DNA of 37,007 nucleotides from a virus: the IMG/VR virus record IMGVR_UViG_3300027722_000015, positions 1 through 37,007 of that record; one strand, given 5' to 3'. Of this stretch, positions 1 through 35,705 are shown piece after piece. The translations under genes were made by a program, and so were the position numbers. How positions within the stretch are numbered: the stretch's first letter is position 1; each line of letters opens with the position of its first letter. The notes beneath the pieces are model-generated. The model made no database searches. It saw only the letters and a list, made by a program, of their open reading frames with translations, and was not told the DNA's origin.

Positions 1-292
1 TGTTCTGAGTAACATAGATCTTGGACATGTTGGGTTTACTTCCATTAAAAGACATCACATTTATATAGAAATCTGATACCTCTGACATAAACAGACCTTG
101 TATATGTTCTACCTCATCTATATAATCCCCGGGTGCATGTTTCCACCTCTTAGTAATATAGTCAAAGGATACCCTGGCATGCTTAAAAATATCTATTCCA
201 AATAGAGGGAAGTCCTCTATAGGGTCTGGGAATATATAAGGATTATTCTTTAGAGTTACATGGTTCTTATCTACTCTTTCTGTAAGATTCAT
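1..292 (-). CDS. PVFG-family small protein, 3' end cut by the window
   Basis: The frame is open from an ATG at 292-290 to the window edge (97 codons, no stop). It carries the family signature in the form DPIEDFPLFGID near residue 25, after a longer N-terminal lead than its neighbours, and then an alternating hydrophobic/charged stretch that suggests beta strands. Its start overlaps the stop of the upstream gene by 4 bases, so the two are probably translationally coupled. It is the most downstream visible member of a run of five paralogues. Function unknown. Confidence 0.75.
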   Translation of the reverse strand, partial: MNLTERVDKNHVTLKNNPYIFPDPIEDFPLFGIDIFKHARVSFDYITKRWKHAPGDYIDEVEHIQGLFMSEVSDFYINVMSFNGSKPNMSKIYVTQN

Positions 293-510
293 AGTCTTCT
301 TATTGATAAACAGTCTTCTATACGAATTATGTTGAGCGGATCTTTGAAATAAAAGAACTGATCAGACCCCAGTTTTATTGACATGAAGATCCCCACAAAG
401 GGAGGATTCTCTCCCAAAGAGTTATCTCCAGATTTAAAAACAATAACTTTTTCTCTATCCTCAATATCCACACCAAATACTGGTTTATAATCAAGACTCT
501 CTTTTTCCAT
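289..510 (-). CDS. PVFG-family small protein (73 aa)
   Basis: Begins MEKESLDYKPVFGVDIED, the family hallmark: a short acidic lead, then P-V-F-G-hydrophobic-D. The rest looks like a small all-beta domain and ends in the basic IRRL-type terminus shared with several paralogues. It overlaps the upstream paralogue by 20 bases and the downstream one by 4, which fits one polycistronic transcript. No catalytic motif is visible. A small SH3-like barrel that binds protein or nucleic acid is an inference only. Confidence 0.85.
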   Translation of the reverse strand: MEKESLDYKPVFGVDIEDREKVIVFKSGDNSLGENPPFVGIFMSIKLGSDQFFYFKDPLNIIRIEDCLSIRRL

Positions 511-2400: not shown

Positions 2401-2652
2401 TTAGAAAATTGTGTATGTTTCTAGTTTTGGTGATTCTTCAAGAAGAGGTGCCCATTTCCCACCACTATAGATATATCCTGCACCAGCATCTATACGAAGA
2501 GGGTTCTTATCTAGAACTCGTACATCTCTAGATGTTGTAGTAATATTATGAGGACTTACATCAAGTACCCTCCCATGTCCATTCATATAATAATGTTTGG
2601 TACCTTTTGGGTATCTTCTCTGAGCTTCTTTTATTATCTCTTCTTCAGTCAT
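2401..2652 (-). CDS. YxIF-tail family protein, EARRRYP type (83 aa)
   Basis: Residues 1-20 (MTEEEIIKEAQRRYPKGTK) match the N-terminus of the paralogues at 2655, 2902 and 3178. The middle is beta-rich and variable with a Trp near residue 67 (GGKWAP). The C-terminus is L-E-T-Y-T-I-F. It is the last gene of a run of eight that share this end. Gene spacing is 2 bases. Function unknown; the tail looks like a docking peptide (inference). Confidence 0.87.
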   Translation of the reverse strand: MTEEEIIKEAQRRYPKGTKHYYMNGHGRVLDVSPHNITTTSRDVRVLDKNPLRIDAGAGYIYSGGKWAPLLEESPKLETYTIF

Positions 2653-2654
2653 AA

Positions 2655-2897
2655 TTAGAATATTTTGTATGATTCCACATCAGGGATTATCTTTGCCCAT
2701 TCTCCATTATTATAGATCCTGGCATTACATCCTGTATTTATTCTAAACCAGAGTTCACTGGTATTACCTGAACCTTGGCATCTGGTACTATCTATAATCT
2801 TACCAAAATACTGCCTGGGATTAAAAGTAGAGATTACAAAAACTCCTGTATTGTATCCTCTTGCATGTGCTTCCCTTATAAGTTCTTCTTTAGTCAT
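2655..2897 (-). CDS. YxIF-tail family protein, EARRRYP type (80 aa)
   Basis: The start is taken at ATG 2897-2895, giving MTKEELIREAHARGYNTG in line with its paralogues; a longer frame to 2942 would run into the upstream gene and lacks family similarity. The middle contains a W-A-K step after a G-E (NGEWAKI), as in the 2401 and 2902 products. It ends V-E-S-Y-K-I-F followed by TAA. Function unknown. Confidence 0.85.
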   Translation of the reverse strand: MTKEELIREAHARGYNTGVFVISTFNPRQYFGKIIDSTRCQGSGNTSELWFRINTGCNARIYNNGEWAKIIPDVESYKIF

Positions 2898-2901
2898 GAT
2901 C

Positions 2902-3174
2902 CTAGAATATTTGATATAATTCAAGTTTTGGTAGTTGAGCAACTTCAGAAATCACCGCCCATTGTTCTTTGTAATAAATTATCTCTGAGAAGTCATGTCC
3001 ATTCTTTGTCATATCACCACTGCTTTCCTGAATAGCAGAATCAGTCAAATAAAACCTTTCTGGATCATATACTGTACATATCCTATCTCTGGCAGGACCA
3101 AGATGAACTGGGAAATATTTAGTCCCAGCAGGATATCTCCTTCGGGCTTCTTCAAGTAATTGCTTTTCATCCAT
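2902..3174 (-). CDS. YxIF-tail family protein, EARRRYP type (90 aa)
   Basis: Starts MDEKQLLEEARRRYPAGTKY, the clearest form of the N-terminal helix shared by four neighbours. It has the conserved K-E-Q-W-A-V-I strand near residue 70 and the end L-E-L-Y-Q-I-F, closed by TAG instead of the usual TAA. It lies 3 bases after the upstream gene. Function unknown. Confidence 0.88.
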   Translation of the reverse strand: MDEKQLLEEARRRYPAGTKYFPVHLGPARDRICTVYDPERFYLTDSAIQESSGDMTKNGHDFSEIIYYKEQWAVISEVAQLPKLELYQIF

Positions 3175-3177
3175 GAC

Positions 3178-3423
3178 TTAAAAGATTTTGTAAGTTTCTA
3201 CTTTATCTTTATGACATACTTCAGCCCAAACCCTATTGCGATTACTATAAAGATTTGCAGTATCAATAACCCAAACTTCACCGTCCCTATCTATATAGAT
3301 CCTAGGCTCTCTCTTAGATGTGTATACTGAGGCTGATAATTTTCCACTAACCTGAACTGGTCTAAATCTGGTTCCTTCTGGAAACCTTCTTCTGGCCTCA
3401 TCTAATAATTCCTGTTGGTTCAT
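3178..3423 (-). CDS. YxIF-tail family protein, EARRRYP type (81 aa)
   Basis: Starts MNQQELLDEARRRFPEGT and continues F-R-P-V, as the 2902 product does with F-P-V. The middle is a short beta domain with I-Y-I-D, V-W-V-I-D and V-W-A-E-V strands. It ends V-E-T-Y-K-I-F, TAA. It closes the group of four EARRRYP-type paralogues; the next genes upstream keep the tail but not the N-terminal helix. Confidence 0.88.
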   Translation of the reverse strand: MNQQELLDEARRRFPEGTRFRPVQVSGKLSASVYTSKREPRIYIDRDGEVWVIDTANLYSNRNRVWAEVCHKDKVETYKIF

Positions 3424-3426
3424 AGT

Positions 3427-3747
3427 CTAAAAGATTTGATAGTTTTCTAATGGGGAAGAGATGTCTTGACTATCAGGTCTTGGTACTAACTTATTAGCTC
3501 TTATACAGAGCTCTAACCAGTACTTCTCTGAAACAGAAGCCAAGGTGATTTTTCTTTCCCCATAGTAAGGGGTACTTTTCTCAAAACAAAAGTCCTCTCC
3601 ACCTCTCATATTGCTTAGGCAGTATGAGTCTTCAAATCTGTTACGACCATCATGAGAACCAGAAAATCGAGTGATTGTATAAGTGGGATCTGTTTCATGA
3701 TTTATCCTATAAAACTCTCCTTTGATACAGTCTTTTGCATTTATCAT
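3427..3747 (-). CDS. YxIF-tail protein with a different N-terminal domain (106 aa)
   Basis: The N-terminus (MINAKDCIKGEFYRI) resembles that of the 4352 product (G-K/E-V/F-Y-x-I after a short lead) and differs from the EARRRYP type. Both also share an L-E-hydrophobic-C-x-R-A-x-K/R segment near the C-terminus (LELCIRANKL here, LEICERAGRF there). The tail is L-E-N-Y-Q-I-F, TAG. The same tail on a second domain type is why the tail stands out. Function unknown. Confidence 0.87.
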   Translation of the reverse strand: MINAKDCIKGEFYRINHETDPTYTITRFSGSHDGRNRFEDSYCLSNMRGGEDFCFEKSTPYYGERKITLASVSEKYWLELCIRANKLVPRPDSQDISSPLENYQIF

Positions 3748-3749
3748 GA

Positions 3750-3992
3750 TTAAAAGATTTTATAGGTTTCCATATGAATTTCTTGTGTTTCCTGAACCAG
3801 GATAAAATTATCAGGGTCCCATCCCATACTGCTGCCCACTTCTTCTCTTGTTCCTAGTACACATATCCTCACATTACCTATGTCCTCCTGATCATAAAGA
3901 ACTCCATATATATTTCCCCTAAGCATACCTCTATCCGACCTATCCGGTCCTTTGTGTCTTTTTATTACATCTCCTTTTTTGAATAGTCTCAT
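3750..3992 (-). CDS. YxIF-tail protein, KKGD barrel type (80 aa)
   Basis: Starts MRLFKKGDVIKRHKGP and has a glycine-hydrophobic-Y step about 28 residues in (GNIYGVLYD), which suggests a small SH3- or KOW-like barrel. It ends M-E-T-Y-K-I-F, TAA. It is closely related in layout to the 3996 product. It is the third domain type carrying the same terminal peptide. Function unknown. Confidence 0.87.
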   Translation of the reverse strand: MRLFKKGDVIKRHKGPDRSDRGMLRGNIYGVLYDQEDIGNVRICVLGTREEVGSSMGWDPDNFILVQETQEIHMETYKIF

Positions 3993-3995
3993 GGT

Positions 3996-4244
3996 TTAGA
4001 ATATTTTGTAGGTTTCCAAACAATTATACTTAGATTCTAGCTCAAAGTAAGATGCTTCCCAGCTGCCATTAGCTCTTCCTGTATTTATAATAGGAATCCC
4101 TGTAAGATCTTCTACTATTACATCACTAGCTGATATTTGGTCGAATCTCACAATATAAGTAACTCCTATAAACATTCCTTTTGAAGGATTAACATGACCC
4201 TGATGAACCCTAACAATACGATCTCCTTTCTTGAATATTGACAT
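3996..4244 (-). CDS. YxIF-tail protein, KKGD barrel type (82 aa)
   Basis: Starts MSIFKKGDRIVRVHQG, then G-M-F-I-G-V-T-Y, matching the 3750 product position by position. The C-terminal end is L-E-T-Y-K-I-F, TAA. A structured gene-free segment (4278-4324) separates it from the next member upstream, the only break in this otherwise tightly packed run. Function unknown. Confidence 0.87.
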   Translation of the reverse strand: MSIFKKGDRIVRVHQGHVNPSKGMFIGVTYIVRFDQISASDVIVEDLTGIPIINTGRANGSWEASYFELESKYNCLETYKIF

Positions 4245-4277
4245 AGTTCTTTGTTTTTAGTAAATAAAAGATAAAGT

Positions 4278-4324
4278 TCCGGGAGTGGTTTAAACTCTTC
4301 AACCAGACTCACACTGGTCCCGGA
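4278..4324 (-). ncRNA. Short hairpin element inside the YxIF-tail operon
   Basis: A perfect 7-bp closing repeat (4278-4284 with 4318-4324) encloses a hairpin stacked directly on it (4303-4306 with 4314-4317) and a self-complementary octamer (4288-4295). It occupies the only sizeable gap in the eight-gene run. It could be an mRNA processing or attenuation element. It is not a clear terminator, because no T-run follows on the - strand. Confidence 0.4.
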
Positions 4325-4351
4325 TCTTCTGCATAGGCATCTGTAATTTCT

Positions 4352-4648
4352 TTATATTGTGTACCTTTCTAATGACTCTACTGGATCAATAAATCTCCCA
4401 GCTCTTTCACATATTTCCAGTCTTTCAATTTCTCCCGGGGTAGCAAGTCTTATGGTAGTTACCTGATTTGGAGAACTTGATCCTTTTGTAGTAAAATCAG
4501 TAAACCGACCTGAAAGAGTTATACGTAAAAAAGTATCTTTATCTGGTGGGATGAATCTACTTATATATCCTTTCTTACCATTACCAAGATCAACATAAGG
4601 TATCTGATAATACACTTTTCCTGGTATTAGCTTATTATATGGGATCAT
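4352..4648 (-). CDS. YxIF-tail protein, tail lacking the final Phe (98 aa)
   Basis: The first gene of the run in transcription order. The N-terminus (MIPYNKLIPGKVYYQIP) and the L-E-I-C-E-R-A-G-R segment pair it with the 3427 product. It ends L-E-R-Y-T-I and then TAA where the others have Phe, so the tail is one residue short. Whether this is a degenerate member or a natural variant cannot be told from sequence. Function unknown. Confidence 0.86.
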   Translation of the reverse strand: MIPYNKLIPGKVYYQIPYVDLGNGKKGYISRFIPPDKDTFLRITLSGRFTDFTTKGSSSPNQVTTIRLATPGEIERLEICERAGRFIDPVESLERYTI

Positions 4649-5677: not shown

Positions 5678-6250
5678 TTAAATGAGATTTAGTTTATCTA
5701 TAGCACTCTTCATATCATTATCTGTGAGTCCTGTCTCACTACTGGTTTTTATAAACCAAGGAGCCTGCTCTAAGAGCATATCTGCATCATCATCCAAAAT
5801 AATATAAACAAAGTCCTTTCCTAGTTTATTTGAGAACATCTTCTTGAATGATTGATCTTCTTTAAATTCCTTATAAAGATGATCTAATTCCGGATTAGCA
5901 TGCCAAGGGTAGACCAAATGTCTATCTATCCAGTGTTTTATCTCAACTCCCCGGGGAATAGGTAAAGAGCTTCCTTTCTTAGTCTCTGTATACCCATGGA
6001 CTGTGATTCCTATAATCTCATCCCAAAGATCCTGAGGGAAACCGTGTTTGTCAAACTGCTCTTTCATAAGAGTGGAGTCACTGCACCGCCAGGAGGATGA
6101 TACCACAATCTTGGCACCGGTCTGCTGGATTATATATTTTAACCTTTCCATACACAAGACATCAAACATATTGTAGGGAGGAATATTGACTACTCCATCT
6201 ATGTCCAAGAATATGATCTTTGCAGGGAGTCCTCCGGTTATTGTTTTCAT
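5678..6250 (-). CDS. HAD-superfamily phosphatase-like protein (190 aa)
   Basis: HAD signatures are in order: motif I FLDIDGVVN at 14-22 with the nucleophile Asp16 and acid/base Asp18; motif II VVSSSWR at 49-55; motif IV-like ILDDDADML at 151-159, which would bind magnesium. The V/I-V-S-S-S-W-R form is typical of the small phage HAD group related to the HAD domain of RNA-repair proteins (HAD_SAK-like). It probably removes phosphate from a nucleotide, nucleic-acid end or other small substrate in the cytoplasm; the substrate cannot be read from sequence. Length is normal for the group and all key residues are present. Confidence 0.92.
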   Translation of the reverse strand: MKTITGGLPAKIIFLDIDGVVNIPPYNMFDVLCMERLKYIIQQTGAKIVVSSSWRCSDSTLMKEQFDKHGFPQDLWDEIIGITVHGYTETKKGSSLPIPRGVEIKHWIDRHLVYPWHANPELDHLYKEFKEDQSFKKMFSNKLGKDFVYIILDDDADMLLEQAPWFIKTSSETGLTDNDMKSAIDKLNLI

Positions 6251-6268: not shown

Positions 6269-6490
6269 TTAATGATTTACAGGAATTATACCTCTGGGAA
6301 AGTAATGAAGGGAAGCTTCTACTCTTTCTTCTGAGTAATCAGTACCAAACTGCCCTCCAAAATACTCAAATGCGAGTTTTCTTCCTTCCTCATAGTCCTT
6401 ACACTGAATAGAAGCAATACAGTCTTTATCAAAGGTTTTGCCATTTACAGAATGAGTATGGATTTGTCCAAAGCTTATGTATAGTTTCAT
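6269..6490 (-). CDS. Conserved small phage protein (73 aa)
   Basis: Contains F-G-Q-I-H-T-H-S-V-N-G-K-T-F-D-K-D-C near the N-terminus, E-E-G-R-K-L-A-F-E-Y-F-G in the middle and H-Y-F-P-R-G near the end, a combination I recognise from small hypotheticals of many phages. Conserved His, Asp and Cys residues could form a metal site, but no biochemical role is known to me. Its start overlaps the stop of the PVFG-family gene upstream by 4 bases. Confidence 0.88.
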   Translation of the reverse strand: MKLYISFGQIHTHSVNGKTFDKDCIASIQCKDYEEGRKLAFEYFGGQFGTDYSEERVEASLHYFPRGIIPVNH

Positions 6491-6720
6491 GGTCTGATAA
6501 TTTTAAATTGGGTTATGTGTCTCTTTATGTATACAGTTATCCCTTCATCTGATGTATCCAGGCCTATATAGAAAGAAGTATTCTTGTCCAGTTGACCCGA
6601 AACAACCTGGTCATTATAACAAAACTGTACATATCTTGGAGGTTCCCAGTCTATTCCAAATACCGGACGATCTTCCAGGACCTCAGCATGTTTCTTTTTA
6701 CCCCAGAAATCCTCATCCAT
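6487..6720 (-). CDS. PVFG-family small protein (77 aa)
   Basis: VLEDRPVFGIDWEPPRYVQF at residues 14-33 is the family signature, followed by the strand-turn G-Q-hydrophobic and the C-terminal end ITQFKIIRP, nearly the same as ITNFKILRS in the 6910 product. It belongs to the second cluster of the family, interleaved with unrelated small genes. It overlaps both neighbours. Function unknown. Confidence 0.88.
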   Translation of the reverse strand: MDEDFWGKKKHAEVLEDRPVFGIDWEPPRYVQFCYNDQVVSGQLDKNTSFYIGLDTSDEGITVYIKRHITQFKIIRP

Positions 6721-6913
6721 AAGAACCTACCATATCAAGTCTCAGATTGCCTTGTACTATGGTTTCTTCCGGACTCTGTCCTTTAAGAGCACTGGGATAT
6801 AAATACACGGATTCTACTCCAAGTAATTGGACAGAACAGTACCGGGTTCCAAACTTACAATCTTTGTACATCTTCCCATTTGGGGCTATGTAGTACTTAG
6901 TTGGTTGGTTCAT
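6713..6913 (-). CDS. Hypothetical protein (66 aa)
   Basis: Starts MNQPTKYYIAPNGKMYKDC; the N-terminal half is Tyr- and Lys-rich with two cysteines (near 19 and 26). No PVFG signature, although it lies between two PVFG genes and overlaps both by 4 to 8 bases. The overlaps on both sides and the use of the main frame support a real gene. Function not recognised. Confidence 0.75.
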   Translation of the reverse strand: MNQPTKYYIAPNGKMYKDCKFGTRYCSVQLLGVESVYLYPSALKGQSPEETIVQGNLRLDMVGSYG

Positions 6914-7161
6914 GATCTTAGTATTTTAAAGTTGGTTATATGGTCTATATCAAACACCATCAGTCTTTTTTGATCTCTAACAAAACTATGATCTGTCACA
7001 AAAATGTACAAGTACTTTTGTGTCTTGTTGAAACCATTTATCTGTCCTGAAACAAATCTCTGATCGTGATAAAGATAAGTAAAAGCAACTTTCTCAGCTA
7101 TCTGAATATCAATTCCAAATACAGGATCTTTGTCCAGAGGTTCCTTTTTCATCTTCTCCAA
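6910..7161 (-). CDS. PVFG-family small protein (83 aa)
   Basis: The N-terminus EPLDKDPVFGIDIQIAEKVAF carries the signature with intact P-V-F-G-I-D. S-G-Q-I in mid-protein and ITNFKILRS at the end closely match the 6487 product, so the two are probably recent duplicates. It overlaps the 7149 paralogue by 13 bases. Function unknown. Confidence 0.88.
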   Translation of the reverse strand: MEKMKKEPLDKDPVFGIDIQIAEKVAFTYLYHDQRFVSGQINGFNKTQKYLYIFVTDHSFVRDQKRLMVFDIDHITNFKILRS

Positions 7162-7355
7162 ACTTCAAAATCAGAAACTATAGTAGCAGAACAACTTATA
7201 AGAGGACTTGCTGTATGTAGATACATATCTTTTTCATGATAATATTGAAAGGTTGCCTCACAGTATCCATGTCCTTTGATACGAAAGTTTATGAGTTCTC
7301 CTCTTTCAGCATCTATTCCGAATATAGATCTTTCCTCTAGTGGTTCCTTCTCCAT
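7149..7355 (-). CDS. PVFG-family small protein (68 aa)
   Basis: One of the shortest members. It starts MEKEPLEERSIFGIDAERGELINF, with Ser-Ile in place of Pro-Val in the core and the common G-E-L-I-N-F step after it. The C-terminus is shortened to FEVWRR. It overlaps the exported protein gene upstream by 19 bases. Function unknown. Confidence 0.86.
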   Translation of the reverse strand: MEKEPLEERSIFGIDAERGELINFRIKGHGYCEATFQYYHEKDMYLHTASPLISCSATIVSDFEVWRR

Positions 7356-8255: not shown

Positions 8256-8885
8256 TTAGAATAGTAAAGGTAATAATCTGTCAATTCCTAAAGCAAATCC
8301 AATCCCTCCATCATATTGTCCTCCACCACATACTTGTTTGGAGGACCCTAGAGAATCACAGATGATCTCAAAGCCCTTACCTTCCTTGTAATAGTCCAAG
8401 CCTCGGGTTACCTCATAGTTTATCTTGAATAGATCTAACTGGAAGCTTGTATCAAGTAGTCTCATTGCAGCTACATGTATTGCATCATACAAATCTGTAG
8501 GGTTAAGTATCTCAACTCCTAATTGTGTAAATTGTCTATATCTCCCAGCCTGGGGTTTTTCACCTCTAAAACACTCCTGGACATAAAACAACTTCACATT
8601 CTTCTGGTCCTTAAAGTAAGTACCTGCTAATTTCTGTATTACTGCAGTATATTCAGGTGCTAGGCACAAGCCCCGGTCTCCCCGGTCTTTAAAGTTGTAC
8701 ATAAGGTTATTGTTCTCTTCTCCTACTTTACCAGAAAAGGTTCCTTGGTGTTGTATAATAGGAACTGAGATCTCAGTAAATCCATCTCCGATTAAGAGAG
8801 CAACCATTCTTTGGATCATCTCTCTCTTTTTATTACCTAGAAGGATCCTGGTGCCTTTGTAGCATGTCTCTTTGATTTCTTTCAT
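8256..8885 (-). CDS. Miniature class II synthetase-like protein, HisRS/HisZ type (209 aa)
   Basis: The catalytic-core signatures of histidyl-tRNA synthetase are in order: a motif 1-like helix and strand at about 24-43 (G-D-G-F-T-E-I-S-V-P-I); G-E-E-N-N-N-L-M-Y and L-A-P-E-Y-T at 55-80; motif 2 CFRGEKPQAGRYRQFTQ at 105-121 with its Arg; the histidine-specific RGLDYY at 161-166; and GGGQYDG then GFALGIDRL (motif 3) at 187-204. Full HisRS is about 420 residues. Here the anticodon-binding domain is absent, the insertion domain is reduced, and the segment between GGxYDG and motif 3 is almost deleted. ATP and histidine binding could survive; charging normal tRNA-His is doubtful. HisZ, which lacks aminoacylation, is the alternative. 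It lies directly downstream of the long structured RNA at 8913-9512. Confidence 0.9.
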   Translation of the reverse strand: MKEIKETCYKGTRILLGNKKREMIQRMVALLIGDGFTEISVPIIQHQGTFSGKVGEENNNLMYNFKDRGDRGLCLAPEYTAVIQKLAGTYFKDQKNVKLFYVQECFRGEKPQAGRYRQFTQLGVEILNPTDLYDAIHVAAMRLLDTSFQLDLFKINYEVTRGLDYYKEGKGFEIICDSLGSSKQVCGGGQYDGGIGFALGIDRLLPLLF

Positions 8886-11442: not shown

Positions 11443-11676
11443 TCACTCTATCTTCTTACTAGTTCTCCTTATATATACCAGTTCTGAGTAGGTGAAGTAT
11501 GCTGGATAAGCTACTGTGGTAGTATAATACTTATATATATCCACCACTATATCCTTATTATATAAGTGATTTACTCTTCCTTTATATAATCCGGTTATTA
11601 CTTTGATCTCAACCTCTTCTCCCGGGTCTATTCCTATACCAAATACAGGTTTAGTATCTATATCTTCTGATTTCAT
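11443..11676 (-). CDS. PVFG-family small protein (77 aa)
   Basis: MKSEDIDTKPVFGIGIDPGE is the family signature at residues 8-20, followed by the V-E-I-K-V strand, a G-R-V turn (KGRVNHLYNKD) and V-Y-I-R-R near the end. It shares the Y-N/G-K-D-I step with the 11679 product. It is the last gene of the third PVFG cluster. Function unknown. Confidence 0.88.
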   Translation of the reverse strand: MKSEDIDTKPVFGIGIDPGEEVEIKVITGLYKGRVNHLYNKDIVVDIYKYYTTTVAYPAYFTYSELVYIRRTSKKIE

Positions 11677-11678
11677 GG

Positions 11679-11906
11679 TTATAATCTCCTGATCTTAAGT
11701 AATTCATAATTAGTAAATAACCAGGCCTCCTTTACTTCCGGTCTATCCTGTAGTTTTACAAGTAAAGATATGTCCTTACCATAACATCTATATACACTTC
11801 CCCGGACTATCTTGTCTACTGTGGTTACTTGTACCTGGGTACGAAGTTCATACTCCATCCCGAAGACCGGTCTATCCTCAATGGGATCATTACCAAATGT
11901 TGTCAT
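11679..11906 (-). CDS. PVFG-family small protein (75 aa)
   Basis: NDPIEDRPVFGMEYELRTQV carries the signature; the central V-R-G-S-V-Y-R-C-Y-G-K-D-I and the terminal Y-E-L-L-K-I-R-R-L align with the 11443 product and with the IRRL end of the 289 product. The gap to the downstream gene is 2 bases and the overlap with the upstream gene is 4. Function unknown. Confidence 0.88.
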   Translation of the reverse strand: MTTFGNDPIEDRPVFGMEYELRTQVQVTTVDKIVRGSVYRCYGKDISLLVKLQDRPEVKEAWLFTNYELLKIRRL

Positions 11907-12145
11907 GGATCTATCCGGGTTATACTCCTTATATTCTCTATATCTATTCTTCTGCTACCTCCAAGGTTAGGAGGAATATCATAGAGTATCAAATAAGACT
12001 CTCTTATATAGTATATAATACCCTGGAGTTCTTCACCATAATGTATCTGGCTATCTCTTATCTGTATATCTACCATATCCCCTGGTCCATATCCTATACC
12101 AAAGATAGGGCCCAGGTCTATGTACTCATCTGAAAATGCATTCAT
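11903..12145 (-). CDS. PVFG-family small protein (80 aa)
   Basis: YIDLGPIFGIGYGPGDMVDI is a variant signature with Ile for Val and Gly for Asp. The rest follows the family plan (G-D-hydrophobic-V, a mid-protein strand I-I-Y-Y-I-R, an Ile-rich end). It is the first gene of the third cluster; upstream lies a 197-base gap with a terminator. Function unknown. Confidence 0.86.
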   Translation of the reverse strand: MNAFSDEYIDLGPIFGIGYGPGDMVDIQIRDSQIHYGEELQGIIYYIRESYLILYDIPPNLGGSRRIDIENIRSITRIDP

Positions 12146-14273: not shown

Positions 14274-15092
14274 ATGGGGTATAAAAAAATTTCTGGGATA
14301 TACCTGATAAGAAATCTTCTGAATAGGAAGGTTTATGTAGGATCTTCTGTGAGCATAAAGAAACGGTGGCTTAATCATAGGAAGATACTAAAAGAAGGAC
14401 TTCACCATAATACTCATCTTCAGTCTTCCTGGAAGAAGTATAGAGAGAACCTCTTTGATTTTTCTATAGTGGAGCTGTGTTCCCAAGAGGAGTTTGTAGA
14501 TAAAGAAAGCTACTGGATAAGGTTTTATAAGTCTTTGGACCGGGCTCATGGTTATAATGCAGTGATCCCGGATTCTCCTAAAGTTTATGTTAAGAGAATT
14601 GTAAAAGCCAAAGCTCAGATACAGAAAGTTATAGTTTGTATAGAGATCAAAACCGGGGTTTTACAAAGAAGAACTCGTCTGGATATAGAAAAGGATTTGG
14701 GAATCCCTCCCAAACGTGTTGGAAGAGTTTTGGATTACTGGATTTCTTCTTCTAAAAAGTATCTAAAAAGAAGTTATAAAGGGTATCTTTTTATAAGAAG
14801 TGAAGAATACATTCCAGATTTTGATTATATAAACTATCACAAAAGTTCAAAGAAGAGAGTAAAATCAAACCCTCTCCCAAGATTAAAGAAGATATACAAG
14901 CCTGTATCTGAGTATAATATAAAAAGAATTCCTATAATAGCTCAGAATGTAGAAACTGGACAGGAACAAACCTTCCCGAGTATTGAGAATTGTATAAACT
15001 CTCTAAAGCTTCTTCCTAGAAGAGTATATGAGGCTCTTGCAAAGAACTTTAAGGTCCGGAGTCACAGAGGATTTTATTTTAGAAAAGCCTAA
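14274..15092 (+). CDS. GIY-YIG homing endonuclease (272 aa)
   Basis: The N-terminal GIY-YIG nuclease: GIYLI at 8-12, KVYVGSS at 19-25, the catalytic Arg in KKRWLNH near 31, an N-x-H-L-Q-S-S-W-K-K-Y segment at about 46-56 and the metal-binding Glu near 67. The C-terminal 170 residues are very basic with two short helix-turn-helix-like repeats (D-I-E-K-D-L-G-I-P-P-K-R near 138 and S-I-E-N-C-I-N-S near 240), the usual modular DNA-binding part. It cuts a specific DNA site to spread its own gene. First gene of the right arm; AT-rich like other mobile genes here. Confidence 0.93.
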   Translation: MGYKKISGIYLIRNLLNRKVYVGSSVSIKKRWLNHRKILKEGLHHNTHLQSSWKKYRENLFDFSIVELCSQEEFVDKESYWIRFYKSLDRAHGYNAVIPDSPKVYVKRIVKAKAQIQKVIVCIEIKTGVLQRRTRLDIEKDLGIPPKRVGRVLDYWISSSKKYLKRSYKGYLFIRSEEYIPDFDYINYHKSSKKRVKSNPLPRLKKIYKPVSEYNIKRIPIIAQNVETGQEQTFPSIENCINSLKLLPRRVYEALAKNFKVRSHRGFYFRKA

Positions 15093-33441: not shown

Positions 33442-34452
33442 ATGAGTGTAACAATTGTAGAAACACCCACCCTAAAGGCTACGACCATTGCGGTGAGACC
33501 CTATGTTGATGAAGCAATTCACAACATGGGACTTGAAAAGTATAAAATGGCCCTGTATGATGGGGTCCTGCATGAAGAATATCTTGCATGCATTGAGATG
33601 AATGGGGTAAAGAGGTATGTCACAGGTCTGAATGAGTTTGCACCAGAGATTAAGCTCCTTCCCAAAGAACAAAGAGAAGCCAAAAGCAGACAGATCAGAG
33701 AGATGGTTGCAGAACTTGAGAAAGAACTTGCTGCCAACATCCTGGATGTAGAAGACAAAGAATTCTGGAATAAGGTAAAACTCCTCAGACCAGATAATTC
33801 TGAGTTCTGGGATAAGATCAATATGAGATGTGGTAATGAACCGGTTTTTCTGGATCCTGTAAAGAGTCCGTATGACCGAATTAAACTATGTGCTATTGAA
33901 GTAGGAGGATTTGATATGATCTCCAAGAGCTATGACGAAGCTCGGAAAAAAGCAGTACCCCCTAAGTTTTACTTAGACAAATTAGAGGCTACCATCTCAA
34001 CCAGAATGGAGATCACAAAACTCAGGAATAGTGCAGTTGCAGAACTTGAGAAGCTCTTTGCTAAGAATATGAGTAAGCTTTTCTACATTGCCAAAGTAGT
34101 AGATGCTAATAGTATTCAATACAAAAGAAGGACTCCAAACGATGTTATCTATGAAAATTTAGATAGGTACATCAGAGGAGAAGGTGCTGAGAAAAGTAAG
34201 ACAAGAGCTATAAATACCTTCCTGGAAGCAACAAAGATGGATATGGAAACCTTGAAGATCCGTGCAATTATTAAGGATTCAACTTATCTGAAGCTAGTCC
34301 ATCTGAAAGGAGATGGTATGATTTACCATTTGGCTTCTAGCACTATGATGGGAAGAAACCCATCAGAACTTACAGAGTTTTTAAAGAACCCCTTGAATGA
34401 GAAGGAGTTAGCAAAACTCACAAGTGATGTAGAGAAATTCTGGAATGAGTAA
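33442..34452 (+). CDS. Conserved virion-region protein, alpha-helical (336 aa)
   Basis: An N-terminal part with beta features (L-A-C-I-E-M-N-G-V-K-R-Y-V) precedes a long helical protein (E-L-E-K-E-L-A-A-N-I near 92; A-V-A-E-L-E-K-L-F near 198). It lies in the head-gene block with the ACCAACCAAAAACCAAC leader. No enzyme motif. It might be a capsid accessory or an internal head protein carried with the DNA. Function not recognised. Confidence 0.85.
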   Translation: MSVTIVETPTLKATTIAVRPYVDEAIHNMGLEKYKMALYDGVLHEEYLACIEMNGVKRYVTGLNEFAPEIKLLPKEQREAKSRQIREMVAELEKELAANILDVEDKEFWNKVKLLRPDNSEFWDKINMRCGNEPVFLDPVKSPYDRIKLCAIEVGGFDMISKSYDEARKKAVPPKFYLDKLEATISTRMEITKLRNSAVAELEKLFAKNMSKLFYIAKVVDANSIQYKRRTPNDVIYENLDRYIRGEGAEKSKTRAINTFLEATKMDMETLKIRAIIKDSTYLKLVHLKGDGMIYHLASSTMMGRNPSELTEFLKNPLNEKELAKLTSDVEKFWNE

Positions 34453-35002
34453 ATTGGTAGAAATAAAAAACTATAAGGAGACTAGAAAAGCATATTATAG
34501 GAATAATAAGGAGAAGATAGATAATCAAAGTAAGAAATATGCTCTTCTTCACCCAGAGTTAATAAAACAAAACTCCAGAAGGTGGTATGAAAAAAACAAA
34601 GAGTACATTAAAGAAAAGATGCAGGTAGTTAAGGAAAGTCCTGACTTTAAGAAAAAAAGAAGCAGTTATAATAAGAAGTACAGAGAGGGTAGTAAAGTTA
34701 GACTAAGGAAGTACTACATAGAAAACAGGGATAAGATATTAACTCGTACCAGAAACTATACATACAAGAGAAATTTTGGGATTACAATAGAAGAGTATGA
34801 TCGGATGTTGAAGGATCAAAATCAAAGTTGTGGTATATGCAAGATTTCAGAGAAGAAGTGGAGAAAGAGATTTTCTGTAGATCATTGTCATAAGACTGGA
34901 AAAGTAAGAGGGTTGTTATGTGGGAAGTGCAATAGTGTATTGGGGTTTGTATCAGACAGTACAGAAATACTATCAAATTGTATAAATTACTTGAATAAGT
35001 AA
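34445..35002 (+). CDS. Endonuclease VII-like (HNH) homing endonuclease (185 aa)
   Basis: F-G-I-T-I-E-E-Y-D-R-M-L at 111-122 and four zinc cysteines C129-x2-C132 and C159-x2-C162 frame the catalytic V-D-H-C-H at 145-149 and G-x-V-R-G-L-L-C, the beta-beta-alpha-metal fold of endonuclease VII. The N-terminal 100 residues are extremely basic and helical, an unusual DNA-binding extension. It overlaps the preceding gene by 8 bases. As a free-standing nuclease between structural genes it is probably mobile; a host-DNA or junction-resolving role is the alternative. Confidence 0.92.
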   Translation: MSKLVEIKNYKETRKAYYRNNKEKIDNQSKKYALLHPELIKQNSRRWYEKNKEYIKEKMQVVKESPDFKKKRSSYNKKYREGSKVRLRKYYIENRDKILTRTRNYTYKRNFGITIEEYDRMLKDQNQSCGICKISEKKWRKRFSVDHCHKTGKVRGLLCGKCNSVLGFVSDSTEILSNCINYLNK

Positions 35003-35003
35003 A

Positions 35004-35705
35004 ATGAATAATACCATATTACAGCTCAAGATAAAAGAGAGATTAAATAAATTGGACAGTCAAGATTATGATAATCTTACTTGTTGGCAGATGGTTGAAG
35101 CCTTCAACAAAGCTCAGGTAGAGTGGTGTAGACGGCAGTTACATGGCCAGAATATCTTTAAGGAGGGGGATGAGCAGTCCACAAGAAGGATAGATGATTT
35201 ACAAGTTCTTTTGCTTGGAGCGGCTCTTGGAGGAACTACCAAGAAGCTTTTCCATGAAGCCAATATCCCGAATGATTATCTTCAGTGGAAGAGAGTTTCT
35301 GCCCAGGCTACAGATGATTGTTGTGAGACACCCAGAAGAATGGTGATATATCTGGCAGAGGAAGGAAACCTGGATATTCTTCTTAGAGACAAGGAGAAGC
35401 AACCAAGTTTTGAGTGGGCCGAGACATTTGCTACTATGAAAGATGGGAAGATCTTTATACATACTGATGGGAAGTTTACTATAAGTTCTCCTTCTCTTGT
35501 GTATTATAGACAACCTGTCCGAATTCAGATCACTGGATGCACGGACCCTTTTACAAATACTGTTCCTCTAGTAGATGTTGAGTCCGAGTTTAAGGATGAT
35601 ATCGTGGAACTTATGATAGATGAGGCCGTATCAGTCCTTGCGGGAGACATAGAATCTATGAATCAATATGCCAGGGAACAACAAAATACTGAGAAAAACA
35701 ACTAA
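35004..35705 (+). CDS. Head-tail connector (ring) protein candidate (233 aa)
   Basis: Helical N-terminal half with M-V-E-A-F-N-K-A-Q-V-E-W-C-R-R-Q near 31-46 and a beta part near 125-185 (L-V-Y-Y-R-Q-P-V-R-I). The end has E-L-M-I-D-E-A-V-S-V-L-A-G-D-I-E, a helix typical of gp4/gp6-type connector proteins. Position after the capsid and fibre genes agrees. It would bind below the portal to hold the tail. Assignment is by position and general features. Confidence 0.78.
   Translation: MNNTILQLKIKERLNKLDSQDYDNLTCWQMVEAFNKAQVEWCRRQLHGQNIFKEGDEQSTRRIDDLQVLLLGAALGGTTKKLFHEANIPNDYLQWKRVSAQATDDCCETPRRMVIYLAEEGNLDILLRDKEKQPSFEWAETFATMKDGKIFIHTDGKFTISSPSLVYYRQPVRIQITGCTDPFTNTVPLVDVESEFKDDIVELMIDEAVSVLAGDIESMNQYAREQQNTEKNN

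What the first reader, a model, noticed from the sequence alone, without database searches (positions are those of the whole stretch)
2401..4648. Eight consecutive proteins of different domain types share one C-terminal peptide (E-x-Y-K/Q/T-I-F)
Three distinct N-terminal domain types (EARRRYP helix, KKGD barrel, GxxYxI type) all end in E-T/S/L/N/R-Y-K/Q/T-I-F. Codons for the shared residues vary at silent positions (TAC or TAT; ATC, ATA or ATT; TTT or TTC; TAA or TAG), so the peptide, not the DNA, appears to be conserved. This looks like a terminal docking or sorting tag read by one common partner, comparable in principle to the C-terminal tail of SSB; for example a host enzyme, a virion component or a phage polymerase. 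A dedicated set of tagged adaptors is, as far as I know, undescribed.
Basis: partly seen in the sequence, partly recalled or inferred. Interest (0 to 1): 0.85.

Follow-up and report, generated by a model that had tools for sequence, protein, structure and literature searches.

The report
Phage mini-proteins sharing one tail tag
In one crAss-like phage, seven small neighbouring genes of three different protein types all end in the same short peptide (E-x-Y-x-I-F), which looks like a common docking tag, but nothing yet shows what it docks to and no second phage with the tag was found.

Summary
Seven consecutive minus-strand genes (2401-4244) end exactly in E-x-Y-[KQT]-I-F; the eighth (4352-4648) ends ERYTI, lacking only the Phe. 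In the 126.6-kb parent contig the stop-terminated tail occurs at these seven places and nowhere else; a degenerate copy without a stop (ELYLLF, 4262-4279) lies in the gap beside the eighth gene. The genes fall into three types (RYP x4, KKGD x2, GxxYxI x2) with no detectable profile similarity once the tail is removed. Relatives of the RYP domain exist without the tail. In the E, Y, I, F codons, first and second bases never vary while third bases differ in 46% of comparisons, so the peptide is what is conserved. A translation-start explanation fails for the two genes whose tail is not beside a start codon. The tag was not found in 50 related contigs, and pattern scans of IMG/VR and GTDB gave only chance-like hits: it is known from one contig. 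Best reading: a C-terminal docking or targeting peptide on a mosaic set of probably early mini-proteins, in principle like the shared termini of T4 internal proteins or of T4 gp43/gp55/gp33. A beta-clamp-like partner is only a lead: the defining Gln is absent.

The parts
2401..2652 (-). RYP-type protein, 83 aa, tail LETYTIF; 26 nt before the next start
2655..2897 (-). RYP-type protein, 80 aa (ATG start), tail VESYKIF; 2 nt before the next ATG
2902..3174 (-). RYP-type protein, 90 aa, tail LELYQIF; 4 nt before the next ATG
3178..3423 (-). RYP-type protein, 81 aa, tail VETYKIF; 3 nt before the next ATG; model: helix plus six strands, tail unplaced
3427..3747 (-). GxxYxI-type protein, 106 aa, tail LENYQIF; 3 nt before the next ATG
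3750..3992 (-). KKGD-type protein, 80 aa, tail METYKIF; 2 nt before the next ATG; residues 1-70 match phrog_4317
3996..4244 (-). KKGD-type protein, 82 aa, tail LETYKIF; 3 nt before the next ATG
4262..4279 (-). Degenerate tail copy E-L-Y-L-L-F without a stop codon, in the 107-nt gap between genes 4352 and 3996; possible relic of a lost tailed gene
   Evidence: chance 0.00075 in a shuffled gap
4352..4648 (-). GxxYxI-type protein, 98 aa, tail LERYTI lacking the Phe codon (ATA TAA where the others have Ile-Phe-stop)

Best explanation
The E-x-Y-x-I-F peptide is a C-terminal short linear motif, a docking or targeting tag, added after the folded domain of a mosaic set of small and probably early, host-facing phage proteins. 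Each protein's domain would supply its own activity, while the exposed C-terminal Tyr, Ile and Phe, helped by the free carboxylate, bring all of them to one common partner. Shown: the tail's recurrence, its position outside the domain (for RYP, and by profile match for KKGD), and constraint on the peptide rather than the DNA. Inferred: that the tail binds something, that there is one partner, and that the genes act early. The partner is unknown.
For: Seven exact tails on three domain types and none elsewhere in 126 kb. In the E, Y, I, F codons, bases 1 and 2 never differ and base 3 differs in 46% of pairwise comparisons. Tail-less profiles are unrelated. RYP domains in L020 and in Cellulophaga phages Calle_1 and phi38:1 end without the tail. 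The linker between domain and tail varies by several residues, and the tail has pLDDT below 50. The genes lie on the minus strand together with the replication genes, about 8-10 kb from the upstream end of that block and opposite to the structural genes; in Crassvirales, blocks of short unknown genes are suspected to be defence-related (PMC10136315). Principle known from T4: interchangeable C-terminal clamp motifs of gp43, gp55 and gp33 (PMC2988020), and internal proteins sharing only a targeting sequence (PMC3012670).
Against: No second phage carries the tag, so there is no between-phage dN/dS and no co-occurring partner. No partner was found. Structure support is thin: RYP model pLDDT 66, KKGD model 43 and uninformative. 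One gene lacks the Phe, so the last residue may be dispensable there. Six of the eight tails end 2-4 nt before the next ATG, so some DNA-level constraint may be mixed in.
Confidence: 0.5

Rival explanations
1. Cassette exchange: tail and gene junction are a shared boundary at which gene bodies are swapped by recombination. The tail is common because it is the retained end of one ancestral gene and has no binding role.
For: Tandem array of interspersed types (B-C-C-B-A-A-A-A); three neighbouring genes of three types share the ATC TTT haplotype; a degenerate tail without a gene body in the gap; 4352 differs by one missing codon.
Against: If only the junction mattered, first and second codon positions should drift as much as third positions; they do not (0 versus 46%). 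The clustering of silent haplotypes along the array is not significant (my runs count, about 0.2).
Confidence: 0.22
2. The tail is the last strand of a common small-barrel fold shared by all three types, which have diverged beyond sequence detection.
For: All are 80-106 aa; the two that were modelled are mostly strand; the poor KKGD model draws a strand at 76-81; shallow profiles cannot exclude remote homology.
Against: Tail-less relatives of the RYP domain; the phrog_4317 match ends before the tail; variable linker length; tail pLDDT below 50 in the RYP model.
Confidence: 0.12
3. Translation signal: the tail DNA is conserved because it is the initiation region of the next gene in the operon.
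For: Six tails lie 2-4 nt before the next ATG. Minus-strand small genes of this phage are A-rich at -14 to -11, and the AAA/CAA plus ATH codons fall there.
Against: The tail of 2401 is 26 nt and that of 4352 is 107 nt from the next start, yet both are kept, the latter without its Phe. Upstream regions of the other genes score at most 9.7 bits against the tail profile (shuffled control 8.1), whereas the four tail-preceded starts in that scan score 21-28, partly by construction. Third bases vary while E, Y, I, F do not.
Confidence: 0.06
4. C-terminal degron or protease tag: the hydrophobic end controls the lifetime of the proteins.
For: Nonpolar C-termini are recognised by some bacterial proteases (established knowledge, not tested here).
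Confidence: 0.06

Closest known systems
T4 internal proteins (IPI and relatives) with a common capsid targeting sequence
   Same: Highly diverse small phage proteins that share only a short targeting peptide (PMC3012670).
   Different: The T4 proteins are capsid cargo. The genes here lie with the replication block, opposite to the structural genes; there is no virion evidence.
C-terminal sliding-clamp motifs of T4 gp43, gp55 and gp33
   Same: Three different proteins with highly similar, interchangeable hydrophobic and acidic C-termini binding one partner (PMC2988020).
   Different: No sliding-clamp gene was identified among the replication proteins searched (not exhaustive), and the motif differs.
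Bacterial beta-clamp binding motif, Q-phi-x-[L/M]-[F/L]
   Same: C-terminal, spacing hydrophobic-x-[I/L]-F. The phage's own polymerase ends NQLTLF and six relatives' end QLKLF. Of 203 C-termini, five tails rank 2-6 in similarity to it.
   Different: The defining Gln is absent (T/S/L/N/R there) and position 4 is Ile, not Leu/Met (definition: PMC11139829).
SSB C-terminal tail
   Same: A C-terminal peptide ending in Phe used as a docking site, in principle.
   Different: No acidic run and no Pro-Phe end; carried by many proteins rather than one (SSB features from general knowledge).

Membership tests
Bacterial beta-clamp binding motif (CBM) | Gln at position 1 of Q-phi-x-[L/M]-[F/L] | tested here: not met
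   Residue is T,S,L,T,N,T,T,R in the eight tails; definition
Bacterial beta-clamp binding motif (CBM) | Leu or Met at position 4 and Phe/Leu at the end | tested here: not met
   Ile at position 4 in all; final Phe in seven of eight
T4-like internal proteins with capsid targeting sequence | Short targeting peptide shared by otherwise diverse small proteins | tested here: met
   here at the C-terminus; targeting itself not tested
T4-like internal proteins with capsid targeting sequence | Packaged in the head and injected | not testable with these tools
   Gene position argues against late expression, but there are no virion data
SSB-type C-terminal tail | Acidic stretch ending in Pro-Phe | tested here: not met
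   Tails end [LVM]-E-x-Y-x-I-F
Crassvirales-type phage (host genome) | crAss-like gene layout with portal, major capsid and terminase | tested here: met
   phrog_6547, phrog_11589, phrog_6681 and large polyproteins in opposed blocks; no phylogeny was made, so family-level placement is inference

The most novel reading that the evidence does not exclude
The phage runs a dedicated tag system: a fast-changing set of small effectors delivered to one partner by a private C-terminal peptide. The 10 or more PVFG-type proteins nearby may carry a related motif (hydrophobic-[E/D]-x-x-x-[I/V]-F) at their N-termini, so over 17 proteins would address the same partner.
Probability: 0.1. Interest if true: 0.8.

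Novelty: new variant of a known kind. Interest (0 to 1): 0.5.

Why it matters
Blocks of short unknown genes are a puzzle of crAss-like phages. A shared tag gives a direct handle: one synthetic peptide could reveal the partner of seven unknown proteins at once, and a new tag would be a useful marker for finding effector sets in other phages.

Tried and rejected
Searching for the tag elsewhere: RYP protein and alignment scans of IMG/VR gave only the parent contig and one tail-less relative. A two-tail pattern in IMG/VR and GTDB genomes gave no in-frame tandem tails outside this phage. In 50 related contigs there were 2 matches against 3 for the reversed control. Phage-database searches with the cluster DNA and three tail proteins gave nothing significant. 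Foldseek with the RYP model had no hit better than E 0.1 in the viral library or 1.1 in PDB. Outer-membrane beta-signal rejected: Tyr is at -4, not -3 as in that signal (from general knowledge), and no signal peptide is apparent by eye. Beta-clamp motif rejected as a membership claim (no Gln). A link between the tail and the N-terminal PVFG motif: SPLENYQIF ranks 4 of 36,337 windows with the PVFG profile but most other tails rank 60-142, suggestive only. Paper searches turned up no earlier description of this tail; they were few and narrow.

Full report
What is there. The window is a 37,007-bp record identical to positions 76,540-113,546 of IMG/VR contig IMGVR_UViG_3300009157_000001, 126,634 bp. 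That contig has a portal, major capsid and terminase of phage families, very large polyproteins, a DNA polymerase, primase, DnaB-like helicase and Sak4-like protein, the layout of a crAss-like phage. Its genes form a plus-strand block, a long minus-strand block holding replication genes and many short genes, and a plus-strand structural block. The finding lies in the short-gene part of the minus-strand block, about 8-10 kb from its upstream end.

Check of the observation. Seven consecutive genes end in E-x-Y-[KQT]-I-F, and the eighth ends ERYTI. The eighth lacks exactly the Phe codon. In 126 kb the stop-terminated DNA form of the tail is found at these seven places only; the reversed control pattern gives none. 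A six-frame scan for a hydrophobic residue or Pro followed by E-x-Y-x-[ILV]-F finds eight of its nine distinct places in this cluster; one of the eight is an unterminated E-L-Y-L-L-F at 4262-4279 in the 107-nt gap (0.00075 in shuffles of that gap), perhaps the relic of another tailed gene.

Three domain types. RYP (2401, 2655, 2902, 3178), KKGD (3750, 3996) and GxxYxI (3427, 4352) each align within the type at about 30-40% identity. With the tails cut off, profile comparison finds nothing between types (the profiles are shallow, so very remote homology is not excluded). Outside this phage the RYP domain occurs as an internal domain of larger proteins: once in L020, and in repeated copies in Cellulophaga phages Calle_1 and phi38:1. 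Most of those copies end at K-W-[AG]-[ED]-hydrophobic or similar, followed by other sequence without the tail. The KKGD match to phrog_4317 stops at residue 70 of 80. The RYP model (pLDDT 66) is a helix plus six strands with the last seven residues below 50; the KKGD model is too poor to use. So, at least for the RYP type and probably for KKGD, the tail is an addition to the domain.

Peptide or DNA. In the four invariant residues the first and second codon bases are identical in all seven genes, while the third base differs in 46% of comparisons; the stop codon varies too. Counting sites, including the stop codon, all 4 variable sites of 15 are third positions (chance about 0.004 by my count). 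The residue x varies at all three bases. The main DNA-level rival is translation initiation: six tails end 2-4 nt before the next ATG, and the small minus-strand genes of this phage are A-rich at -14 to -11, where the K/Q/T and I codons fall. But the tails of 2401 and 4352 are not next to a start and are kept (the latter without its Phe), and other genes start without anything like the tail upstream.

Distribution. The major capsid protein has many relatives at 83-86% identity, yet in 50 related contigs the tail is at chance level, 41 of them show no RYP domain except L020, and six large relatives show no shared C-terminal peptide of this kind. Scans of IMG/VR and of GTDB genomes for one or two tails gave no second cluster. 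The feature is therefore known from one phage contig.

How it most likely works. I take the tail to be a C-terminal docking or targeting motif that brings a turnover-prone set of mini-proteins to one partner (0.5). The best-known precedents in kind are in T4: internal proteins that share only a targeting sequence (PMC3012670), and gp43, gp55 and gp33, whose similar C-termini are interchangeable sliding-clamp motifs (PMC2988020). One lead on the partner: this phage's DNA polymerase ends in NQLTLF and its relatives' in QLKLF, textbook beta-clamp motifs, and five of the tails are the next most similar C-termini in the genome. The tails lack the Gln and the Leu/Met that define that motif (PMC11139829), so they are not filed as clamp motifs; I put a clamp partner at about 0.1. 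Recombinational cassette exchange probably shaped the array and remains the main rival to a binding role.

Limits. One contig, no strain data, no complex prediction, no expression data. Early expression is inferred from gene order and from what is known of Crassvirales transcription (PMC10136315).

Noticed in passing
window 289-510, 491-751, 735-971, 964-1230, 6487-6720, 6910-7152, 7149-7355, 11443-11676, 11679-11906, 11903-12145 (all -): A second private family of small proteins, with an N-terminal motif P-[LI]-[ED]-x-x-P-[VI]-F-G; a strict pattern scan of IMG/VR found it only in this contig. The motif faintly resembles the C-terminal tail.
   Followed up: partly
parent contig 33690-35603 (outside the window; L013:13690-15603): The phage DNA polymerase ends NQLTLF and its homologues in six related phages end QLKLF, canonical beta-clamp binding motifs, suggesting use of the host sliding clamp.
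   Followed up: partly
window 8256-8885 (-): A 209-aa histidyl-tRNA-synthetase-like catalytic core (Pfam PF13393, E 2e-18), much shorter than a full synthetase.
   Followed up: no
window 5678-6250 (-): A HAD-superfamily protein of the HAD_SAK_2 family, named for RNA repair proteins (PF18143, E 1e-23).
   Followed up: no
upstream regions of minus-strand small genes, parent contig 76-89 kb: A-rich at -14 to -11 (about 65% A at each position), probably the translation initiation element of this phage.
   Followed up: partly
window 14274-15092 (+): A GIY-YIG nuclease-domain gene (PF01541) at the junction between the minus-strand and plus-strand blocks.
   Followed up: no
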